Assembly: GCA_037442505.1 (NCBI GenBank)
Contig: JBBIPZ010000001.1
Span: 52,368 to 116,367, forward strand
Length of the DNA stretch: 64,000 nucleotides
From: JBBIPZ01 sp037442505 [NCBI: Deltaproteobacteria bacterium]
Lineage (GTDB): Bacteria > CALINM01
Reading direction: 5' to 3'
Below, piece after piece: positions 56,691 through 63,460 of the stretch; within the stretch, counting starts at the first letter, position 1; every line of letters starts with the position of its first letter. A program made the position numbers and the translations under genes. The notes below the pieces were generated by a model. That model saw nothing but the letters and a program-made list of their open reading frames with translations, was not told where the DNA came from and ran no database searches.

Positions 56691-56770
56691 CGAAACACTA
56701 AAGAACTGGCATAAGATATCTGGGGAAATTTAGTTTGACTTATTTGTTGATTAGGTGTTTAATAAATAAT

Positions 56771-56962
56771 ATGTGCGAATCTAATGTTTATGTGGAAAGA
56801 GAAGGTCAGCAGGAGCTTGTATTCAGTGAAGTGATGCGTATACTGCCAGAAGGTGATGGAGAATACACGCTGGTTGGGCTGCTTGGCGATACAAAAAAGA
56901 TTAAAGGTGCTTTAAAAGAGATAAATCTTTTAGGCCATAAAATAGTTTTCGAAGTAAAATAA
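56771..56962 (+). CDS. CooT-like nickel-binding protein
   Basis: The 63-residue protein starts MCESNVYVEREGQQELVFSEVMRILPEG and continues LVGLLGDTKKIKGALKEINLLGHKIVFEVK. Length, the Cys at position 2 and the GLLG...KEI-x-LL-x-KIVFE pattern match the CooT family, whose founding member is a nickel-binding protein of CO dehydrogenase maturation. Many CooT homologues lie away from CODH genes, as here. Cys2 is the expected metal ligand. The start at 56771 is fixed by that Cys. The gene ends just before the TPP riboswitch. Confidence 0.82.
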   Translation: MCESNVYVEREGQQELVFSEVMRILPEGDGEYTLVGLLGDTKKIKGALKEINLLGHKIVFEVK

Positions 56963-56976
56963 AAAAAAATCGTGAA

Positions 56977-57066
56977 GGACCTGGGGGTGCCTTAATAAGG
57001 CTGAGAACTCTGGTAAGAGTAACTCCAAGCTACCTGATCCGGATAATGCCGGCGGAGGGAATGGTC
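56977..57066 (+). promoter_or_regulatory. TPP riboswitch (THI element)
   Basis: All core parts are present: GGGGGTGCC (56983-56991), GGCTGAGA (56999-57006), ACCTGATCCGGATAATGCCGG (57032-57052) and CGGAGGGAA (57053-57061). P1 can close with GACC (56978-56981) pairing GGTC (57063-57066). The element binds thiamine pyrophosphate and shuts down the thiamine operon that follows. No strong terminator is visible between it and thiF, so control may be at translation. Confidence 0.95.
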
Positions 57067-57117
57067 ATTTCTCTAAAAAACCTTTCCTTACCTCAGATCA
57101 CTTCACTAATAGAATTT

Positions 57118-57921
57118 ATGCAAATAAGGCTTAATGAAAAGTTTATTACGATTGAATCAGGTGCGAAAATCAGTGACGTTAAAAAAAGATATAAAGCCGA
57201 TGCTGACGTTGTTGTTCTCAATGGTTTTCCAGTAAACGCTGATCTTATTTTGAATGATGGTGACGAGCTTTTTTTGATTAAAAGGGGTGAAAGACCGAGC
57301 CTGGAAGAACTTGAATATATGATGATCGCAAGACACACCCCTAAAATTTATGAAAAACTAAGAAAAGCTGTTGTTGGAATAGCAGGTGCAGGGGGACTGG
57401 GTTCAAACGTGGCGATAGCGCTGGCACGTGTTGGTGTTGGAAAAATTATTATAGCAGATTTTGATGTAGTTGAACCTTCAAATCTAAATAGGCAGCAGTA
57501 TTTTGTAGAGCAATTGGGAATGCCAAAGGTGGATGCTATCAAAGAAAATCTAAAAAAAATAAATCCTTACCTAAATGTTGAAACGCATAATGTTCTTCTG
57601 GATACGTCAAATATACCTGAAATTTTTTCAGCCGCAGCGATAGTTGTTGAGGCGTTTGATAGAGCAGAGGCTAAAGCGATGTTAATAAACACAATACTTG
57701 AAAAGATGCCATCTGTAACGATTGTTGCTGCTTCAGGTTTAGCCGGTTATGGTTCAAATAATGAAATAAAAACAAGAAAGATATCAAACAGGCTTTATAT
57801 AGTGGGGGATCTTGTGTCAGAGGCTAAACAGGGTCAGGGTTTGATGGCTCCACGCGTGGGTATTGCTGCATCACATCAAGCCAATCAGGTAGTTAGATTA
57901 ATACTTGGAGAAGGGGAATGA
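57118..57921 (+). CDS. thiF: ThiF-type adenylyltransferase with N-terminal ThiS-like domain
   Basis: The 267-residue protein starts with a ThiS-like beta-grasp domain (about 1-60: MQIRLNEKFITIESG...VVVLNGFPVNADLILNDGDELFLIKRG) and continues as ThiF with VVGIAGAGGLGSNVAIALARVGVGKIIIADFDVVEPSNLNRQQYF (ATP site, residues ~82-125). It adenylates the C terminus of ThiS before sulfur transfer. The start is taken at 57118 because upstream in-frame ATGs (57046, 57061) lie inside the riboswitch and 267 residues fits known ThiS-ThiF proteins. No clear ribosome-binding site is visible. It overlaps thiD by four bases. Confidence 0.88.
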   Translation: MQIRLNEKFITIESGAKISDVKKRYKADADVVVLNGFPVNADLILNDGDELFLIKRGERPSLEELEYMMIARHTPKIYEKLRKAVVGIAGAGGLGSNVAIALARVGVGKIIIADFDVVEPSNLNRQQYFVEQLGMPKVDAIKENLKKINPYLNVETHNVLLDTSNIPEIFSAAAIVVEAFDRAEAKAMLINTILEKMPSVTIVAASGLAGYGSNNEIKTRKISNRLYIVGDLVSEAKQGQGLMAPRVGIAASHQANQVVRLILGEGE

Positions 57922-59255
57922 AAGAGATAAAAAAATTACTTGTTATTGCTGGTTCCGACAGTATGGCAGGGGCAGGGATTCAGGCTGATTTAAAGACTGC
58001 TGCTGCATTAGGGGTGCACGCATCAACGGTGTTGACAGCGGTTACATCGCAAAACACCAGAGGTGTTCATAACATTCATATGGTTCCATTAGAGCATATT
58101 TCATCGCAGTTAAAAGCAATTGCTGATGATGTTGGTTTTGATGCTGTAAAGTTAGGGATGCTTGGCAGCAAAGATGTTGCGAAGCTTGTTTATGACTTCT
58201 TAAAAGGTCATAAAAAGCCTGTGATTATTGACCCCGTCCTCTTTGCGCAAAGTGGAGGCAAACTTTCTGATGCAAATATATTTAAGAGGCTTTTTTCAAT
58301 AGCAACGCTTATCACACCTAACACTAAGGAAGCAGAGATTTTGACAGACACAGAGATAAAAACCGTTACAGATATGGAAAAGGTTGCAAAACTTCTTGCA
58401 GAAGAGAGTAGAGCGGTGCTTGTTAAGGGTGGGGATACTGATATTAACGTTGATATTCTTTGTATTGAAGCCGAAACGACATCTTTTCCTATCAGGAGGA
58501 TTATAACAAAAGATACTCACGGGACGGGTTGTAGTCTTGCAACTGCGATTGCTTGTTTTATATTGAATAACTTTTCTTTAAAAGATGCAGTGATTGAAGG
58601 CAGAAAGTTTGTGAGGCTTGCACTTATGGGCGGTTATCCCTTAGGAAGTCAGTTTGGAACAATAGACCAGTTGACTATTTTAAAAAAAGAGGCAAAAAAA
58701 TACGAAGTATTGAAGGAACTATATTCTGCATATCTAAGTTTACGTCATAAAGGCTTGGGTTATCTGTTGCCTGAAATACAGTCAAATTTTGTATGTCTGC
58801 TGCCTTATGGAGAGACGGCAGAAGATGTTGCTGGCTTTCCAGGAAGAATCATCAGACATTTTGATGACATATATGCACCGTTTTATCCCGATTTTGGTGT
58901 CTCCAAACATATGGCTTCAGTTTTAATTGCTGCACATAGATACTTCCCAGAAATTCGCTCCGCTATGAATATTAAGTTTTCAGAGAAGATATTGGAAGCT
59001 ATAAAAAAGCTCTCGTTTAATGTAGCTTCTTTTGATAGAAAACGTGAACCCAAAATAATTAAAGAGAAAGAAGGTAGTAGTCTGGACTGGGGAGTTAGTG
59101 ATGCGTGTGAAAACGCAACTACCCCACTTGATGCGATCTTTGACAGAGGTGATATAGGTAAAGAACCTGTAATAAGAATTTTTGGCAAATCACCCTTAGA
59201 GGTGTCAAAAAAGATACTAAAAATTAGTAAGGAATTAAAAAATGTTAAATTTTGA
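57918..59255 (+). CDS. thiD: ThiD-ThiN fusion: HMP-phosphate kinase plus thiamine-phosphate synthase domain
   Basis: Residues 1-255 are ThiD (IAGSDSMAGAGIQADLKT, LTAVTSQNTRGVH, TPNTKEAEILT, DTHGTGCSLATAIACF), which phosphorylates hydroxymethylpyrimidine phosphate. Residues about 270-445 are a ThiN domain (FPGRIIRHFDDIYAPFYPDFGVSKHMASVL, then SFDRKREPKIIKEKEGSSLDWG), which can join the pyrimidine and thiazole parts in organisms lacking ThiE. Here a ThiE gene is also present three genes downstream. It overlaps the next gene by 14 bases. Confidence 0.93.
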   Translation: MKEIKKLLVIAGSDSMAGAGIQADLKTAAALGVHASTVLTAVTSQNTRGVHNIHMVPLEHISSQLKAIADDVGFDAVKLGMLGSKDVAKLVYDFLKGHKKPVIIDPVLFAQSGGKLSDANIFKRLFSIATLITPNTKEAEILTDTEIKTVTDMEKVAKLLAEESRAVLVKGGDTDINVDILCIEAETTSFPIRRIITKDTHGTGCSLATAIACFILNNFSLKDAVIEGRKFVRLALMGGYPLGSQFGTIDQLTILKKEAKKYEVLKELYSAYLSLRHKGLGYLLPEIQSNFVCLLPYGETAEDVAGFPGRIIRHFDDIYAPFYPDFGVSKHMASVLIAAHRYFPEIRSAMNIKFSEKILEAIKKLSFNVASFDRKREPKIIKEKEGSSLDWGVSDACENATTPLDAIFDRGDIGKEPVIRIFGKSPLEVSKKILKISKELKNVKF

Positions 59256-60558
59256 CAAAATTACAGAACTGTCAAAAGAACGATACATTTTGAGTGAAAA
59301 AGCGCTTAATAGTATCCTTGACAAAGCGGTGTTGGGTAAAGAGCTTAATTTAGAAGATGCTGCAGCATTACTCAGTATCGAAAATGATGAATGGATTGCA
59401 AGGTTATTGGATACTGCTTTAAAAGTAAAGGAACGCGTTTTTGGTAAACGCATAGTGCTTTTTGCTCCGCTTTACTTATCAAACGAATGTGTAAATCAGT
59501 GTCTTTATTGTGCTTTCCAGGCAGGAAATCTGAAAGAGAAAAGAAAAACTCTTACGATTGATGAGGCAGTAAAAGAGGCAAACTTTCTTGTAAAAAGAGG
59601 GTTCAGGCGAACGCTATTGGTTACAGCAGAAAATAAGGCAAAGTGTAGCGTAGATTACATCGTGTCTGTGACAAAAGAGCTTTATCAAAAGACAGGATTA
59701 AGAATAATCCACTTAAATGCGGCACCGATGGAAGTTGAAGAGTTAAGCGAGATTAGAAAAGCTGGGATAGGCGTGTTTCAGGTGTTCCAGGAGACATATA
59801 ACAAGGTAACTTATGAAAAACTGCATGTAAAAGGCAAAAAAGCAGATTTTAATTACAGACTTACATGTATGAACAGGGCATTAGAGGCAGGATTTAAAGA
59901 CGTGGGCATAGGTGCGTTACTTGGGCTTTACGATTATAAATTTGACGTGCTTTCTGTTATAGCTCATGCGAAGTATCTTAAAAAGGAGTATGGCACATAT
60001 CCTCATACCATATCAGTTCCCCGTTTCAGACATGCTTTGGGTGCAAAAATTGATGTTGCACCATTTCCCATTGATGACAGAACGTTTAAGAAGATTGTTG
60101 CAGTTTATAGACTGGCAGTTCCTACCACGGGCATTGTTGTATCCACAAGGGAACAAGCAAAGCTTAGGGATGAAATTATCTTTTGTGGTGCGTCTCAGAT
60201 AAGCGCTGAGTCTTCAACTTCTCCCGGAGGCTACACAAATTCTACAGAGGAAGGAAACAGCAGTCAATTTAGTTTAAGTGACAGACGTTCTTTAGAAGAG
60301 GTGGTTCTTGCTATTCTTGAAAAGGGTATGCAGCCGAGCTTTTGTACTGCTTGTTACAAAAAAGGAAGAGAAGGCGGGCATTTTCACGAACTTGCTGAAA
60401 AGGGATTAATAAAAGATTTTTGCGAAAAAAACGCTTATAGTTCTTTTCTGGAATATGTTGAAACCTTACACAATGAAGCCTTAAAGAAGGATATAAAAGG
60501 AAAAATGAAGCAGGTTTTTGGTTTTAAAAACGAGGTAGTAAGAGGGCATTTAGTATGA
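59242..60558 (+). CDS. hydG: HydG-family radical SAM tyrosine lyase in the thiamine operon (ThiH role)
   Basis: The 438-residue enzyme has the radical SAM cluster C-x3-C-x2-C in NECVNQCLYCAF and HydG/ThiH core motifs (NAAPMEVEELSEIRKAGIG, VFQETYNKVTYEKLH, VGIGALLGLYDYKFDVL, PHTISVPRFRHA). The C-terminal auxiliary-cluster motif is C-x2-C-x22-C (CTAC...DFC, near residues 373-398) with SLSDRRSLEEVV and SFCTACYKKGREG. ThiH lacks that C-terminal motif; HydG has it. The place between thiD and thiS implies it makes dehydroglycine from tyrosine for thiazole synthesis. No hydE or hydF is in view. Confidence 0.88.
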   Translation: MLNFDKITELSKERYILSEKALNSILDKAVLGKELNLEDAAALLSIENDEWIARLLDTALKVKERVFGKRIVLFAPLYLSNECVNQCLYCAFQAGNLKEKRKTLTIDEAVKEANFLVKRGFRRTLLVTAENKAKCSVDYIVSVTKELYQKTGLRIIHLNAAPMEVEELSEIRKAGIGVFQVFQETYNKVTYEKLHVKGKKADFNYRLTCMNRALEAGFKDVGIGALLGLYDYKFDVLSVIAHAKYLKKEYGTYPHTISVPRFRHALGAKIDVAPFPIDDRTFKKIVAVYRLAVPTTGIVVSTREQAKLRDEIIFCGASQISAESSTSPGGYTNSTEEGNSSQFSLSDRRSLEEVVLAILEKGMQPSFCTACYKKGREGGHFHELAEKGLIKDFCEKNAYSSFLEYVETLHNEALKKDIKGKMKQVFGFKNEVVRGHLV

Positions 60559-60755
60559 TTTTAAAAATTAATGGCAAAGAAAGAAATGTTTCTCAGGGCA
60601 TTAATATCTCTCAACTGCTTGACGAACTGAATATACAAAAGGACAGGGTTGCGGTTGAACTAAACAAAGAAATTGCAAAAAAATCACAATGGGAAAATAT
60701 CTATTTAAAAGAGGGAGATGTGCTTGAGATTGTAACATTTGTTGGTGGTGGATAG
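60555..60755 (+). CDS. thiS: Sulfur carrier protein ThiS
   Basis: The 66-residue ubiquitin-like protein ends in VTFVGGG, supplying the Gly-Gly tail that is adenylated by ThiF and thiocarboxylated. ILKINGKERNVSQGINISQLLDEL and RVAVELNKEIAKKSQW are typical of ThiS. It overlaps the preceding gene by four bases. A separate ThiS-like domain is already fused to ThiF, so the operon encodes two. Confidence 0.95.
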   Translation: MILKINGKERNVSQGINISQLLDELNIQKDRVAVELNKEIAKKSQWENIYLKEGDVLEIVTFVGGG

Positions 60756-60791: not shown

Positions 60792-61562
60792 ATGGAAGAC
60801 GTATTGGTGATAGCAGGTAGAAAGTATAAATCAAGACTTTTTGTCGGAACAGGAAAATACTCAACTCCGGAGATTATGATTGGTGCAATAAAAGAATCCG
60901 GGTCAGAGCTTGTTACTGTTGCTGTGAGAAGGATGAATATAGAGGGTCAACAAAGGACGATTCTTGATTATTTAGCAGAACTTAATTGTGAAATTTTGCC
61001 AAACACTGCAGGTTGTTATACAGCTGAAGAGGCTATAAGAACAGCAAGATTGGCAAGGGAACTTGGTATTTCTGACATGGTAAAGCTTGAAGTAATTGGC
61101 GATCAGAAGACACTTTTCCCTGATAATGAGGCTTTGTTGGAAGCAGCAAAGGTGCTTGTAAAAGAGGGGTTTGTTGTATTACCTTACACAAATGATGACC
61201 CGATAATGGCAAAAAAATTAGAAGAAATTGGCTGTGCAGCAATAATGCCACTTGGAGCACCGATTGGTTCGGGACTTGGCATCAGAAATCCTTACAACAT
61301 AAAAATAATTCTTGAGACTGTTAAGATTCCTGTAATAGTAGATGCGGGTGTAGGAACAGCTTCTGATGCAGCGTATGCTATGGAGTTGGGCTGTAGTGGA
61401 GTGCTTATGAACACAGGGATTGCTGGTGCAAAAGACCCGATAAAAATGGCGAGAGCTATGAAATATGCTGTTCAGTCAGGAAGGCTGGCTTATTTAGCGG
61501 GCAGGATTCCTAAAAAGCTTTATGCAAACGCCTCAAGTCCACTTACCGATTTGATAGAGTAG
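60792..61562 (+). CDS. thiG: Thiazole synthase
   Basis: The 256-residue TIM-barrel enzyme forms the thiazole ring from deoxyxylulose phosphate, dehydroglycine and ThiS thiocarboxylate. Marks are [14 protein letters not shown], the catalytic-Lys region [50 protein letters not shown] and [34 protein letters not shown] precedes the ATG. It follows thiS directly, as expected for partners. Confidence 0.97.
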
Positions 61563-61565
61563 CTT

Positions 61566-62192
61566 ATGCAGTTTAATGAAAAAGTTTATGTAATTACTGA
61601 CAGAAGGGCTGCAGGCAATAATTTTTTTTCGATAATTGAGGCGTTGATTGTAAACGGTTTTAATTTTATTCAGCTCAGGGAGAAAGATTTATCTGCCTTT
61701 GAACTATACCTTTTAGGTAAAAAAATTATCGAAATGGGCAGGAGTACTGAGCTAAAGTTGGTTATTAATGATAGATTGGATGTTGCTTTAGCGTTAAATG
61801 CCCATGGTGTTCAACTGACAGAAAACAGTCTGACAGCTGATGTTGTAAAGAAGCTAACGAAAGATATCAAGATTGGAATCTCCATTCATGATGAAAGACG
61901 CTTAAAACTTTACGAAACTTTTGCCGACTTTTTTGTTTTTGGCAATATATTTGAGACTAAAAGCAAGCCAAATGTAGTGGGCAAAGGTGTTTTTGCTTTA
62001 AAAAATATTGTTTCTAAGACAGCCAAGCCTGTATATGCGATTGGAGGAATAAATGCAGATAATTTACATCTTGCATTTGAAGCTGGTGCCTATGGAGTTG
62101 CTATAAAGGGGGCGTTTTTTTCGTCAGACAATTATTTAGAACAAATTGAAAAGATTAAAAATTTTATCTCTGCATTAAAAGGAGTTTCTTAA
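61566..62192 (+). CDS. thiE: Thiamine-phosphate synthase ThiE
   Basis: The 208-residue TIM-barrel enzyme couples the pyrimidine pyrophosphate and thiazole phosphate. It shows VITDRRAAGNNFFSIIEAL, FIQLREKDLSAFEL, LVINDRLDVALALNAHGVQLTEN, FFVFGNIFETKSKPN and VYAIGGINADNLHLAFEAGAYGVAI. The usual GxSTHS loop is replaced by GISIHDERRL, a modest departure at a position near the phosphate. Its function would duplicate the ThiN domain of the ThiD fusion. The stop overlaps the thiC start by one base. Confidence 0.93.
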   Translation: MQFNEKVYVITDRRAAGNNFFSIIEALIVNGFNFIQLREKDLSAFELYLLGKKIIEMGRSTELKLVINDRLDVALALNAHGVQLTENSLTADVVKKLTKDIKIGISIHDERRLKLYETFADFFVFGNIFETKSKPNVVGKGVFALKNIVSKTAKPVYAIGGINADNLHLAFEAGAYGVAIKGAFFSSDNYLEQIEKIKNFISALKGVS

Positions 62193-63460
62193 TGAAAGAT
62201 GAGTTGGAGTGTATGTTAAAAGAAGTTGCAAAAGAAGAAGCGGTTAGTTTAGAAAAGCTTTCTCAACTGTTTCTTGAGGGGAAGATTGCGGTCTTCAGGA
62301 ATATCAAAAGAAAGATTAAACCTGTTGCAGTAGGAGAGGGTTTAAGAGTAAAAGTTAACGCAAATATAGGAACATCAAACAAATGTAGCAGTATGAAGAA
62401 AGAGCTTGAAAAGGTTGCTGTTTGTGAGGAAGCCGGTGCTGATGCGATAATGGATTTATCCACTGGTGGTGACCTAAGCAGTATAAGACGAGAAATATTA
62501 TCTGCTACCAAGCTACCTGTAGGAACTGTGCCAATATATGAGGTAGCTTGTGATGTTCTTGTAAAAAAGAAAAAGGGCATCGAATGTTTTGAGTTCAGCC
62601 TGTTTAGAGATGTAGTAGAAAAGCAGGCAGAAGAAGGTGTGGATTTTATGACCATTCATTGTGGGCTAACCTATACAGCCTTAGAAAGACTTGAGAGGGC
62701 AAAACGTTCAATGGCTGTAGTTTCAAGAGGCGGGTCTTTGATAGTTGAATGGATGAAGAAAAATAAAAGGGAGAACCCCCTTTATGAAAATTTTGACGAG
62801 CTGATGAAGATCGCTAAAAAATACAATATCGTCTTAAGTCTTGGAGATGGATTGAGGCCAGGTTCAACCTTAGATGCTACAGACGGACCGCAGATAGAAG
62901 AGTTAATCATACTTGGAGAGCTTGTGGAGAAGTGCAGAAACAATAATGTTCAGGTAATAGTAGAAGGTCCGGGTCATGTTCCATTAAATCAGATTGAAAC
63001 AAACATCAAACTGCAAAAAAGTTTATGTAAAGGAGCACCATTTTATGTTCTTGGCCCTCTTGTTACGGATATTGGTGCTGGTTATGACCATATTGTAGCT
63101 GCGATTGGAGGGGCATTAGCCGCTCATGCAGGTGCTGACTTTTTATGTTATGTAACGCCAGCTGAGCATCTCCGTCTTCCTGATACTGAAGATGTGAGAG
63201 AAGGTGTGATAGCCTCTAAGATTGCTGCGCATGCTGCAGATTTAGCAAGGGGCAATAAACTTGCGTGGGAAAGAGAAAAAAGGATGGCTAAGGCAAGGTA
63301 TGCGCTAAACTGGAAAGAACAGGTGGCTGCTGCAATTTTCCCATCAAAAGCTAAAAACGTTTTAGGTGAAACACTGGAAAAAGAGGAACCTTGTAGTATG
63401 TGTGATGAACTTTGTGCTATAAAGACTTCCAAAAGAAGCAATGAAGTAAAAAATAGATAA
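62192..63460 (+). CDS. thiC: Phosphomethylpyrimidine synthase ThiC
   Basis: The 422-residue radical SAM enzyme converts aminoimidazole ribotide into hydroxymethylpyrimidine phosphate. It has VNANIGTSNKCSSMKKELEK, GADAIMDLSTGGDLSSIRREIL, FMTIHCGLT, SLGDGLRPGSTLDATDGPQI and YVTPAEHLRLPDTEDVREGVIASKIAAHAADLA. The C-terminal cluster motif C-x2-C-x4-C lies in PCSMCDELCAIK. At 422 residues it is the compact bacterial/archaeal form without the N-terminal extension. It is the last gene of the riboswitch-controlled operon. Confidence 0.97.
   Translation: MKDELECMLKEVAKEEAVSLEKLSQLFLEGKIAVFRNIKRKIKPVAVGEGLRVKVNANIGTSNKCSSMKKELEKVAVCEEAGADAIMDLSTGGDLSSIRREILSATKLPVGTVPIYEVACDVLVKKKKGIECFEFSLFRDVVEKQAEEGVDFMTIHCGLTYTALERLERAKRSMAVVSRGGSLIVEWMKKNKRENPLYENFDELMKIAKKYNIVLSLGDGLRPGSTLDATDGPQIEELIILGELVEKCRNNNVQVIVEGPGHVPLNQIETNIKLQKSLCKGAPFYVLGPLVTDIGAGYDHIVAAIGGALAAHAGADFLCYVTPAEHLRLPDTEDVREGVIASKIAAHAADLARGNKLAWEREKRMAKARYALNWKEQVAAAIFPSKAKNVLGETLEKEEPCSMCDELCAIKTSKRSNEVKNR

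What the first reader, a model, noticed from the sequence alone, without database searches (positions are those of the whole stretch)
59242..60558. HydG-type enzyme in place of ThiH in a thiamine operon
The protein has the exact HydG auxiliary-cluster motif C-x2-C-x22-C and HydG-like sequence throughout, but sits between thiD and thiS. HydG normally turns tyrosine into CO and cyanide for [FeFe]-hydrogenase; ThiH stops at dehydroglycine. Here the C-terminal cluster is kept where only dehydroglycine seems needed. It could be a dual-use enzyme, an evolutionary intermediate, or a ThiH that needs the cluster for another step.
Basis: partly seen in the sequence, partly recalled or inferred. Interest (0 to 1): 0.68.

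Follow-up and report, generated by a model that had tools for sequence, protein, structure and literature searches.

The report
HydG-type enzyme dedicated to vitamin B1
An enzyme of the family that normally makes carbon monoxide and cyanide for hydrogen-handling enzymes appears, in a whole group of bacteria, to have been given over to making vitamin B1 while keeping its second metal site, which gives a natural way to ask what that metal site is for.

Summary
Window 59242-60558 encodes a HydG-family protein (NCBIfam HydG 386.9 bits, over cut-off; ThiH 332.9, under cut-off) between thiD-thiN and thiS, in a TPP-riboswitch thi operon. It is no one-off: 41 other genomes, from at least two phyla, carry the clade (one branch in each tree), beside thiS-thiG in 39 of 41. 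No ThiH was detected in any of the 41. HydE was found in 7, exactly those with a second, HydE-linked HydG; [FeFe]-hydrogenase in 3 of 30 tested. A TPP riboswitch precedes the operon in 30 of 33 kin loci searched. The second metal site's ligands are intact in 41 of 41 rows, yet residues fixed in 62 other HydGs have changed, mostly on the barrel face carrying that site. Best reading: a HydG-derived tyrosine lyase replaces ThiH, supplying dehydroglycine to ThiG, with the auxiliary-cluster cavity remodelled. 'Dual use' is disfavoured; 'intermediate' is undecided. What the retained cluster does is unknown but testable. The window's own genome is not held. By-catch: HypC-HydE fusions with HydG in [NiFe]-hydrogenase operons of genomes without detected HypD.

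The parts
56973..57078 (+). TPP riboswitch aptamer ahead of the operon
   Evidence: Rfam RF00059, 65.8 bits, gathering score 54.3
57046..57921 (+). thiF with N-terminal ThiS-like domain (first ATG lies inside the riboswitch, so the true start is probably later)
   Evidence: NCBIfam TIGR02354 286.7 bits, Pfam PF14453 and PF00899 over cut-off
57918..59255 (+). thiD-thiN fusion (HMP-P kinase + thiamine-phosphate synthase ThiN)
   Evidence: Pfam PF08543 242.1 bits, PF10120 177.4 bits; TIGR00097 239.8 bits
59242..60558 (+). HydG-family radical SAM protein of the thiamine-linked clade; C83/C87/C90, H255 (= TiHydG His265), C368/C371/C394
   Evidence: TIGR03955 386.9 bits; alignments and trees; AF2 model mean pLDDT 93.3, Z 54.1 to 4wcx
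60555..60755 (+). thiS, sulfur carrier protein
   Evidence: TIGR01683 78.6 bits, cut-off 37.45
60792..61562 (+). thiG, thiazole synthase (the expected user of dehydroglycine)
   Evidence: Pfam PF05690 381.0 bits
61566..62192 (+). thiE/tenI family gene (cannot be told apart by score: ThiE 133.1, TenI 130.5, both under their cut-offs)
   Evidence: Pfam PF02581 148.6 bits; NCBIfam
62192..63460 (+). thiC, phosphomethylpyrimidine synthase
   Evidence: NF009895 599.8 bits, TIGR00190 573.6 bits

Best explanation
It is a dedicated thiamine-branch member of the HydG family that replaces ThiH. Inferred mechanism: the radical-SAM site at the top of the barrel splits tyrosine into p-cresol and dehydroglycine, as ThiH and HydG do; dehydroglycine passes down the barrel to a lower cavity that still holds an auxiliary [4Fe-4S] cluster and the HydG histidine, but whose wall has been rebuilt, so that it is held or screened from water there and passed to ThiG instead of being broken into CO and cyanide for a hydrogenase. 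Shown here by sequence: family membership, thi operon and riboswitch context, no ThiH detected in kin genomes, dissociation from HydE/hydrogenase, conservation of all metal ligands and tyrosine-site residues, and clade-fixed changes concentrated at the lower end of the barrel. Inferred: the product, the handover to ThiG, that the cluster is actually present, and its role (holding dehydroglycine is my preferred but weakest step, about 0.4).
For: thi context: 14 of the 80 kept loci of the scan show the gene next to thiS-thiG and a fifteenth (L001, cut at the contig end) next to thiF-thiDN; 14 of 36 neighbourhoods and 11 of 20 add thiS-thiG neighbours; L165 ends too soon to show neighbours but has the clade's residues and place in the tree. 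All 41 rows, window included, are one branch in a quick tree of 121 rows (SH-aLRT 93); 29 of them in the careful tree (94/99). TPP riboswitch ahead of the operon in the window and in 30 of 33 kin loci searched (of 41 held); two of the three misses are contig edges, L174 has none over the gathering score. ThiH: 0 of 15 genomes over the ThiH cut-off (10 of 12 comparison genomes are) and 0 of 26 further genomes with a ThiH-like hit in the HydG-model search. In one draw of 395 genomes of a phylum, 0 of 29 genomes with this clade have a ThiH-like hit against 27 of 54 with only other HydG-type hits (hand count). HydE 7 of 41, exactly the genomes with a second HydG; [FeFe]-hydrogenase 3 of 30 tested. 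Tyrosine-site residues T302, R303, R309, S321, S324 41 of 41; metal ligands 41 of 41, x22 spacing 41 of 41. Of 115 positions conserved in 55 other HydGs, the clade (30 rows) abandons 9, of which 8 lie at strand starts (33 of 115 do), Fisher p 1.7e-4, and none just after strand ends.
Against: No biochemistry. The window's own genome is not held, so its ThiH, HydE or second-HydG content is unknown; for kin genomes the tool states no completeness, and many are MAGs by title, so absences may be gaps. If only dehydroglycine were wanted, keeping the cluster ligands and the dangler-iron histidine is unexplained; it may mean that the second site still does chemistry. 'Lower cavity' is inferred from DSSP strand starts and barrel topology: no coordinates were available. 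The clade differences are one branch, not independent events, and the window itself keeps the HydG residue at one of the nine positions (T296). G004 holds a 62-residue remnant of another HydG with no HydE.
Confidence: 0.82

Rival explanations
1. The auxiliary cluster is catalytically active here: dehydroglycine is processed at the second site (for example to a metal-bound cyanide or another C-N unit) and ThiG builds the thiazole from that product, or an iron-bound adduct is handed over.
For: All ligands of the cluster and His265 are kept in 41 of 41 rows, with exact spacing; a mere ThiH role would not need them (the 11 ThiH rows lack the domain).
Against: The residues that are fixed in 62 other HydGs and lie on that side of the barrel are changed (R165, N167, T188, G263, Y305 in TiHydG numbering). 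A ThiE/TenI-family hit follows in 33 of 40 clade loci examined (8 of 15, several others cut short; 14 of 14; 11 of 11), as in ordinary thiazole routes that go through a carboxylated thiazole (recalled). ThiG is ordinary by Pfam score.
Confidence: 0.12
2. Structural relic: the cluster only holds the C-terminal domain together, inherited from a maturase ancestor, and has no part in catalysis.
For: The clade lies within or beside HydG; residues near the second site have changed.
Against: H255, whose counterpart in HydG is a ligand of the extra iron (PMC6212873, passage, names a histidine; number recalled), is kept in 41 of 41 rows although a related group has replaced it with Arg in 7 of 7.
Confidence: 0.2
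3. Dual-use enzyme that serves both hydrogenase maturation and thiamine.
For: The three nearest genomes do have [FeFe]-hydrogenase hits and HydE.
Against: Each of those has its own second HydG beside HydE; in 34 of 41 genomes no HydE was found at E <= 1e-40.
Confidence: 0.04
4. An ordinary HydG that happens to sit in a thi operon by rearrangement.
For: NCBIfam's HydG model accepts it.
Against: One clade in the same operon context in at least two phyla, riboswitch-controlled, with no ThiH and mostly no HydE.
Confidence: 0.02

Closest known systems
HydG, [FeFe]-hydrogenase maturase (PDB 4wcx, 4rtb; NCBIfam TIGR03955)
   Same: Sequence family and fold over the whole length (Z 54.1, rmsd 1.7 over 430 residues to 4wcx); auxiliary C-x2-C-x22-C; His265; F192; tyrosine-site residues.
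   Different: thi operon and TPP riboswitch instead of hydE/hydF; clade changes at R165, N167, T188, G263, Y305, I309 (kept by 62 of 62 other HydG rows) and at T306 and M394 (61 of 62); the window has all of these changes except T306, where it keeps Thr. Seven rows of a third HydG-like type were set aside from the 62.
ThiH, 2-iminoacetate synthase (PDB 7pd1; NCBIfam TIGR02351)
   Same: Genomic role and operon position; tyrosine-binding residues except that Ser324 is Val in 8 of 11 ThiH rows; fold of the barrel (Z 48.8 over 361 residues).
   Different: Under the ThiH cut-off; has the C-terminal cluster domain; Asn where ThiH has Glu158 (11 of 11 ThiH rows), Phe where ThiH has Tyr181 (10 of 11); trees separate them at 100/100.
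ThiO, glycine oxidase (the aerobic dehydroglycine source)
   Same: Would fill the same slot in the pathway (recalled).
   Different: Unrelated protein; none over cut-off in the 15 clade genomes tested.

Membership tests
HydG protein family | NCBIfam TIGR03955 equivalog cut-off (312.15 bits) | tested here: met
   386.9 bits
HydG protein family | Auxiliary-cluster motif C-x2-C-x22-C in a C-terminal domain | tested here: met
   C368, C371, C394; 41 of 41 clade rows, spacing 22 in 41 of 41; L004 read past an in-frame TAG
HydG protein family | Histidine ligand of the dangler iron (TiHydG His265) | tested here: met
   H255; 41 of 41 clade rows, 62 of 62 other HydG rows, 0 of 11 ThiH rows
HydG protein family | On the HydG side of the HydG/ThiH split | tested here: met
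   100/100 split
HydG as [FeFe]-hydrogenase maturase | Works with HydE and HydF for an [FeFe]-hydrogenase | tested here: inconclusive
   tblastn of one HydE, HydF and HydA each finds no such gene in the 64 kb window (HydE hits only the HydG-like gene itself); own genome not held; in kin HydE was not found in 34 of 41 genomes and otherwise goes with a second HydG
HydG as [FeFe]-hydrogenase maturase | Residues fixed in 62 other HydGs on the second site's side (R165, N167, T188, G263, Y305); my own criterion, not a published definition | tested here: not met
   I155, H157, V178, Y253, T295 in the window
HydG as [FeFe]-hydrogenase maturase | Makes CO and cyanide from tyrosine | not testable with these tools
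   needs assay
ThiH protein family | NCBIfam TIGR02351 equivalog cut-off (380 bits) | tested here: not met
   332.9 bits
ThiH protein family | Glu158 facing the tyrosine carboxylate and Tyr181 at the channel (PMC9046217) | tested here: not met
   N159 and F182 in the window
ThiH role (2-iminoacetate synthase) | thi operon | tested here: met
   Operon and riboswitch in the window
ThiH role (2-iminoacetate synthase) | No other ThiH/ThiO in the same genome | tested here: inconclusive
   Own genome not held; in kin no ThiH in 41, no ThiO over cut-off in 15 tested
ThiH role (2-iminoacetate synthase) | Makes dehydroglycine that ThiG uses | not testable with these tools
   needs assay or complementation

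The most novel reading that the evidence does not exclude
The second iron site is active and part of thiazole synthesis: the enzyme converts or binds dehydroglycine at an iron centre and the thiazole C2-N3 unit reaches ThiG from that metal site, so that vitamin B1 synthesis in these bacteria runs through a HydG-like organometallic step unlike the ThiH and ThiO routes.
Probability: 0.13. Interest if true: 0.9.

Novelty: new variant of a known kind. Interest (0 to 1): 0.72.

Why it matters
It separates two halves of HydG's chemistry in nature: tyrosine cleavage to dehydroglycine, and what happens at the auxiliary cluster. A HydG that keeps every metal ligand but has exchanged its hydrogenase partners for ThiG, and has changed residues on the second site's side, makes it directly testable which residues commit dehydroglycine to CO and cyanide. 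It bears on whether HydG or ThiH came first. It fills a pathway gap: such genomes look as if they lack a dehydroglycine source. And it is a trap for annotation: the HydG model accepts these proteins, so automated surveys may report hydrogenase maturation in organisms in which no [FeFe]-hydrogenase is found.

Tried and rejected
Misplaced HydG: rejected by the clade-wide operon and riboswitch context and by the second HydG that tracks HydE. Membership in ThiH: rejected by score, residues and tree. 'Sister to all other HydG': supported 80/87 in the first tree (rows chosen by similarity to the window) but unresolved with wider sampling and only not rejected by the AU test, p 0.365; I do not claim it. 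PMC9046217 says that HydG carries Glu/Asp at the position of ThiH residue 128 to offset Asn at Glu158: in my alignment only 4 of 72 HydG rows have Glu there (a shift of the alignment is possible), so I did not use it as a marker. ThiE or TenI for the window gene: scores cannot tell. C-terminal tail R-D-x-Y-x: present by a strict pattern in 23 of 30 clade rows and 41 of 53 others, missing from the window and its three nearest kin, so not diagnostic. CooT upstream of the operon: seen in the window, L001 and L003, not taken as part of the system. The weak second HydG hit of G004 was followed up: a 62-residue tail remnant, most like the HydG of L115, in the middle of a contig. Papers: searches for HydG with ThiH (6 papers; passages seen in 3, the others by listing), with '2-iminoacetate synthase' (1), with thiC and thiG (7, none relevant by listing), with dehydroglycine (7), with thiamin, genome, hydrogenase and thiazole (3) and one five-term search (0) gave no report of a thiamine-linked HydG; only open-licence full texts are held, and Dinis et al. 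2015 was not, so absence from print is not shown.

Rows dropped before counts: 23 near-copies from the first tree; the same 23 plus 14 more, among them L010 (near-copy of L007) and the divergent L117, from the alignments; 15 of the 101 rows of that alignment from the second tree. The 7 rows of a third HydG-like type (5) were set aside from the 'other HydG' group. The genome tallies (29, 94, 27 of 54) were counted by hand from the printed tables; one of the 29 (G093) is assigned by residues and tree alone; 'ThiH' there means a hit of ThiH score and length to the HydG model, and for G301 the second match is not shown and was taken as ThiH. Searches are overlapping draws of one phylum, not independent. 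Of the 41 genomes, 3 are of the phylum of G001 and 30 of the phylum of G005; the phylum of the other 8 was not tested. [FeFe]-hydrogenase was not searched in 11 of the 41, HydF and ThiO only in 15.
Full report
What is there. The window ORF 59242-60558 (+, 438 aa) is a radical-SAM protein with C83-x3-C87-x2-C90 and C368-x2-C371-x22-C394. NCBIfam puts it over the HydG cut-off (386.9 against 312.15 bits) and under the ThiH cut-off (332.9 against 380). By sequence its best solved relatives are HydG 4wcx and 4rtb, then ThiH 7pd1. An AlphaFold2 model from a 52-row alignment has mean pLDDT 93.3 and matches 4wcx with Z 54.1, rmsd 1.7 over 430 residues, 4rtb with Z 49.7 and ThiH 7pd1 with Z 48.8 over 361 residues. 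The gene lies in thiF, thiD-thiN, [this gene], thiS, thiG, thiE/tenI-family, thiC; it overlaps its two neighbours. A TPP riboswitch lies at 56973-57078.

It is a clade, not an oddity. One scan of genome contigs found 500 relatives and kept the best 80. In 14 of these 80 the gene stands beside thiS-thiG, and a fifteenth (L001), cut at the contig end, beside thiF-thiDN; no other of the 80 has a thiS or thiG hit within the flanks held. Surveys of one phylum (198 genomes; 395 in the overlapping) led to 56 fetched neighbourhoods: 14 of 36 and 11 of 20 have thiS-thiG next door; L165, whose contig is too short to tell, has the clade's residues and falls in the clade. That makes 41 genomes. The three with the nearest relatives are the only three held for their phylum, and all three carry the gene. 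In the first tree the 16 clade rows then known form one branch (99/92); with wider sampling 28 rows plus L165 form one branch (94/99) on the HydG side of a 100/100 split from ThiH; in a quick tree of 121 rows all 41 clade rows (window included, L010 left out as a near-copy) form one branch (SH-aLRT 93). Where it attaches to the other HydGs is unresolved: the alternative in which all other HydGs are one clade is not rejected (AU p 0.365).

It stands in for ThiH. In the first 15 genomes no ThiH reaches the cut-off, while 10 of 12 comparison genomes have one; in the 26 further genomes the HydG-model search at E <= 1e-40, which finds hits of ThiH score and length (about 160 to 235 bits) elsewhere, finds none. 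In the 395-genome draw, 0 of 29 genomes with this clade have such a hit, while 27 of the 54 genomes that have only other HydG-type hits do (hand count; Fisher p 7.5e-7, which ignores kinship). No ThiO reaches its cut-off in the 15 tested (none of the 10 comparison genomes has one either, 3 of 14 control genomes do). The TPP riboswitch precedes the operon in the window and in 30 of 33 clade loci searched (of 41 held); L002 and L203 start at or inside the first gene, L174 has none over the gathering score.

It is uncoupled from hydrogenase. HydE (E <= 1e-40) is found in 7 of 41 clade genomes, and these are exactly the seven that carry a second HydG-type hit outside the clade, next to HydE (G001, G002, G003, G014, G022, G129, G370); in G014 that hit is cut by the contig end, and G003 has a further one beside a hydrogenase. 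G004 keeps a 62-residue remnant of another HydG and no HydE. An [FeFe]-hydrogenase is found in 3 of the 30 tested (G001-G003). HydF reaches its cut-off in 1 of 15 (G003) and is in pieces in G002. So in 34 of 41 genomes the thi-linked protein is the only complete HydG-family member found and no HydE is found for it to work with. The tool states no completeness for these genomes, so single absences prove little; the pattern is the evidence.

What is kept and what is changed. Numbering in brackets is that of Thermoanaerobacter italicus HydG, set so that the aligned histidine and phenylalanine are His265 (recalled) and F192 (PMC9046217). Kept in 41 of 41 clade rows: radical-SAM cysteines; T302, R303, R309, S321, S324 at the tyrosine site (PMC9046217 calls their ThiH counterparts key or strictly conserved in ThiH and HydG; in my 11 ThiH rows the counterpart of S324 is Ser in only 3); F182 [F192]; C368, C371, C394; H255 [His265]. 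PMC6212873 and PMC5352715 (passages seen) describe the second HydG cluster with its dangling iron, the former with a histidine ligand. Changed: the clade has I at R165 (40 of 41), H at N167 (41), V at T188 (40), H, F, Y or W in 39 and never Gly at G263, T or S in 33 and never Tyr at Y305, A at T306 (37; the window keeps Thr), V at I309 (41), and T or H in 38 at M394; the other 62 HydG rows keep the HydG residue in 62, 62, 62, 62, 62, 61, 62 and 61 of 62. The seven rows of a third HydG-like type are set aside from these 62. Of 115 positions conserved in at least 85% of 55 other HydGs, 9 are given up by the clade (30 rows), and 8 of these 9 lie within -4 to +2 of a barrel-strand start in the model, against 33 of 115 in all (p 1.7e-4); none lies just after a strand end, the side of the radical-SAM site. 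H255 itself lies at such a strand start. So both metal sites keep their ligands while the side that carries the second site has been rebuilt.

How it most likely works. Tyrosine is cleaved at the upper site to p-cresol and dehydroglycine (inferred from conserved residues). PMC9046217 (sections 8 and 12 read, other passages seen) notes that dehydroglycine is hydrolysed in water, must be protected on its way from ThiH to ThiG, and would leave through corresponding channels in ThiH and HydG. In this clade I propose that the lower site receives it and, with a changed wall, does not take it on to CO and cyanide but gives it to ThiG. The retained cluster and histidine may hold it; this is the least certain step. 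The rival that the lower site still does chemistry is not excluded and is the novel case.

Comparison and novelty. It works like ThiH (inferred) and is a member of the HydG protein family; it should not be filed as a ThiH-family protein, nor, on this evidence, as a hydrogenase maturase. I found no report of it in the searches listed, which cover open-licence papers only. PMC3226654 (passages seen) warns that ThiH and HydG are easily mixed in profiling; the passages do not describe this. [quoted passage not shown] whether this clade fills that gap was not tested. Novelty: a new variant of a known kind.

Limits. The window's own genome is not held. No assay. Near-copies and divergent rows were dropped as told under Tried and rejected. 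Searches are overlapping draws from one phylum. The PDB chains in the alignments are the aligned stretches only.

Noticed in passing
L186 4566-8795 (G129); L115 1811-8796 (G022); L040 5647-14065 (G037, Omnitrophica): HydE fused behind a HypC domain (Pfam PF01455 in 3 of 3) with HydG among [NiFe]-hydrogenase genes: NiFe large-subunit relatives in L115 and L040 (475.9 and 266.9 bits, under the named models' cut-offs), HypB in L186 and L115, protease and HypA in L186 (other neighbours by eye). HypD at E <= 1e-20 is found in 0 of 6 of G014, G022, G129, G370, G037, G045, but in 3 of 3 of G001-G003; G013, which has [FeFe]-hydrogenases, also lacks it. No [FeFe]-hydrogenase in G014, G022, G037 and G129; G370 and G045 not tested. 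HydE/HydG may supply the iron ligands of [NiFe]-hydrogenase there. Papers naming HydG and HypD (11) were seen only as a listing.
   Followed up: partly
L159, L160, L208 (beside HydE, HydF, HydA); also L119, L120, L178, L209, L210, L211: A HydG group in which the second auxiliary-cluster cysteine (window C371) is Gly: 9 of 62 non-clade rows, three of them next to HydE, HydF and HydA genes.
   Followed up: partly
L175, L176, L179, L180, L181, L213, L214: A third HydG-like type: keeps the C-terminal cysteines but has Arg for His265, Trp for the tyrosine-site Arg309 and Leu for Ser321 in 7 of 7; no hit to the hyd or thi query genes in the stretches held; function unknown.
   Followed up: partly
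L061, L063, L064, L066-L068, L070, L072-L080: 16 HydGs, titled Bacteroidetes-type or Alphaproteobacteria, have Ala and Asp in place of Thr302 and Ser321 (window numbering) at the tyrosine phenol site.
   Followed up: no
L033-L036, L039, L041, L044, L046, L048, L050, L051, L054, L058: 13 HydGs (Halanaerobium, Smithella/Syntrophaceae-type and a spirochaete) have Glu at the position of ThiH Glu158 where most HydGs have Asn.
   Followed up: no
L215 4436-4678 (G004:C220): A remnant of about 62 residues of the tail of another HydG, most like that of L115, in the middle of a contig of a genome whose only full HydG is the thi-linked one.
   Followed up: yes
window 56735-56962: A CooT-family gene lies just upstream of the riboswitch, also in L001 and L003.
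   Followed up: partly
window 57046-57078: The first ATG of the thiF ORF lies inside the predicted TPP riboswitch, so that start is probably too early.
   Followed up: no
L004 2927-4261: The clade member in L004 has one in-frame TAG ahead of the auxiliary-cluster motif: pseudogene, read error or recoding.
   Followed up: partly
L117 5213-6682 (G042:C154): A very divergent HydG-like protein, below the HydG cut-off (281.8 bits), just after an [FeFe]-hydrogenase gene in a genome that also has an ordinary HydG.
   Followed up: no
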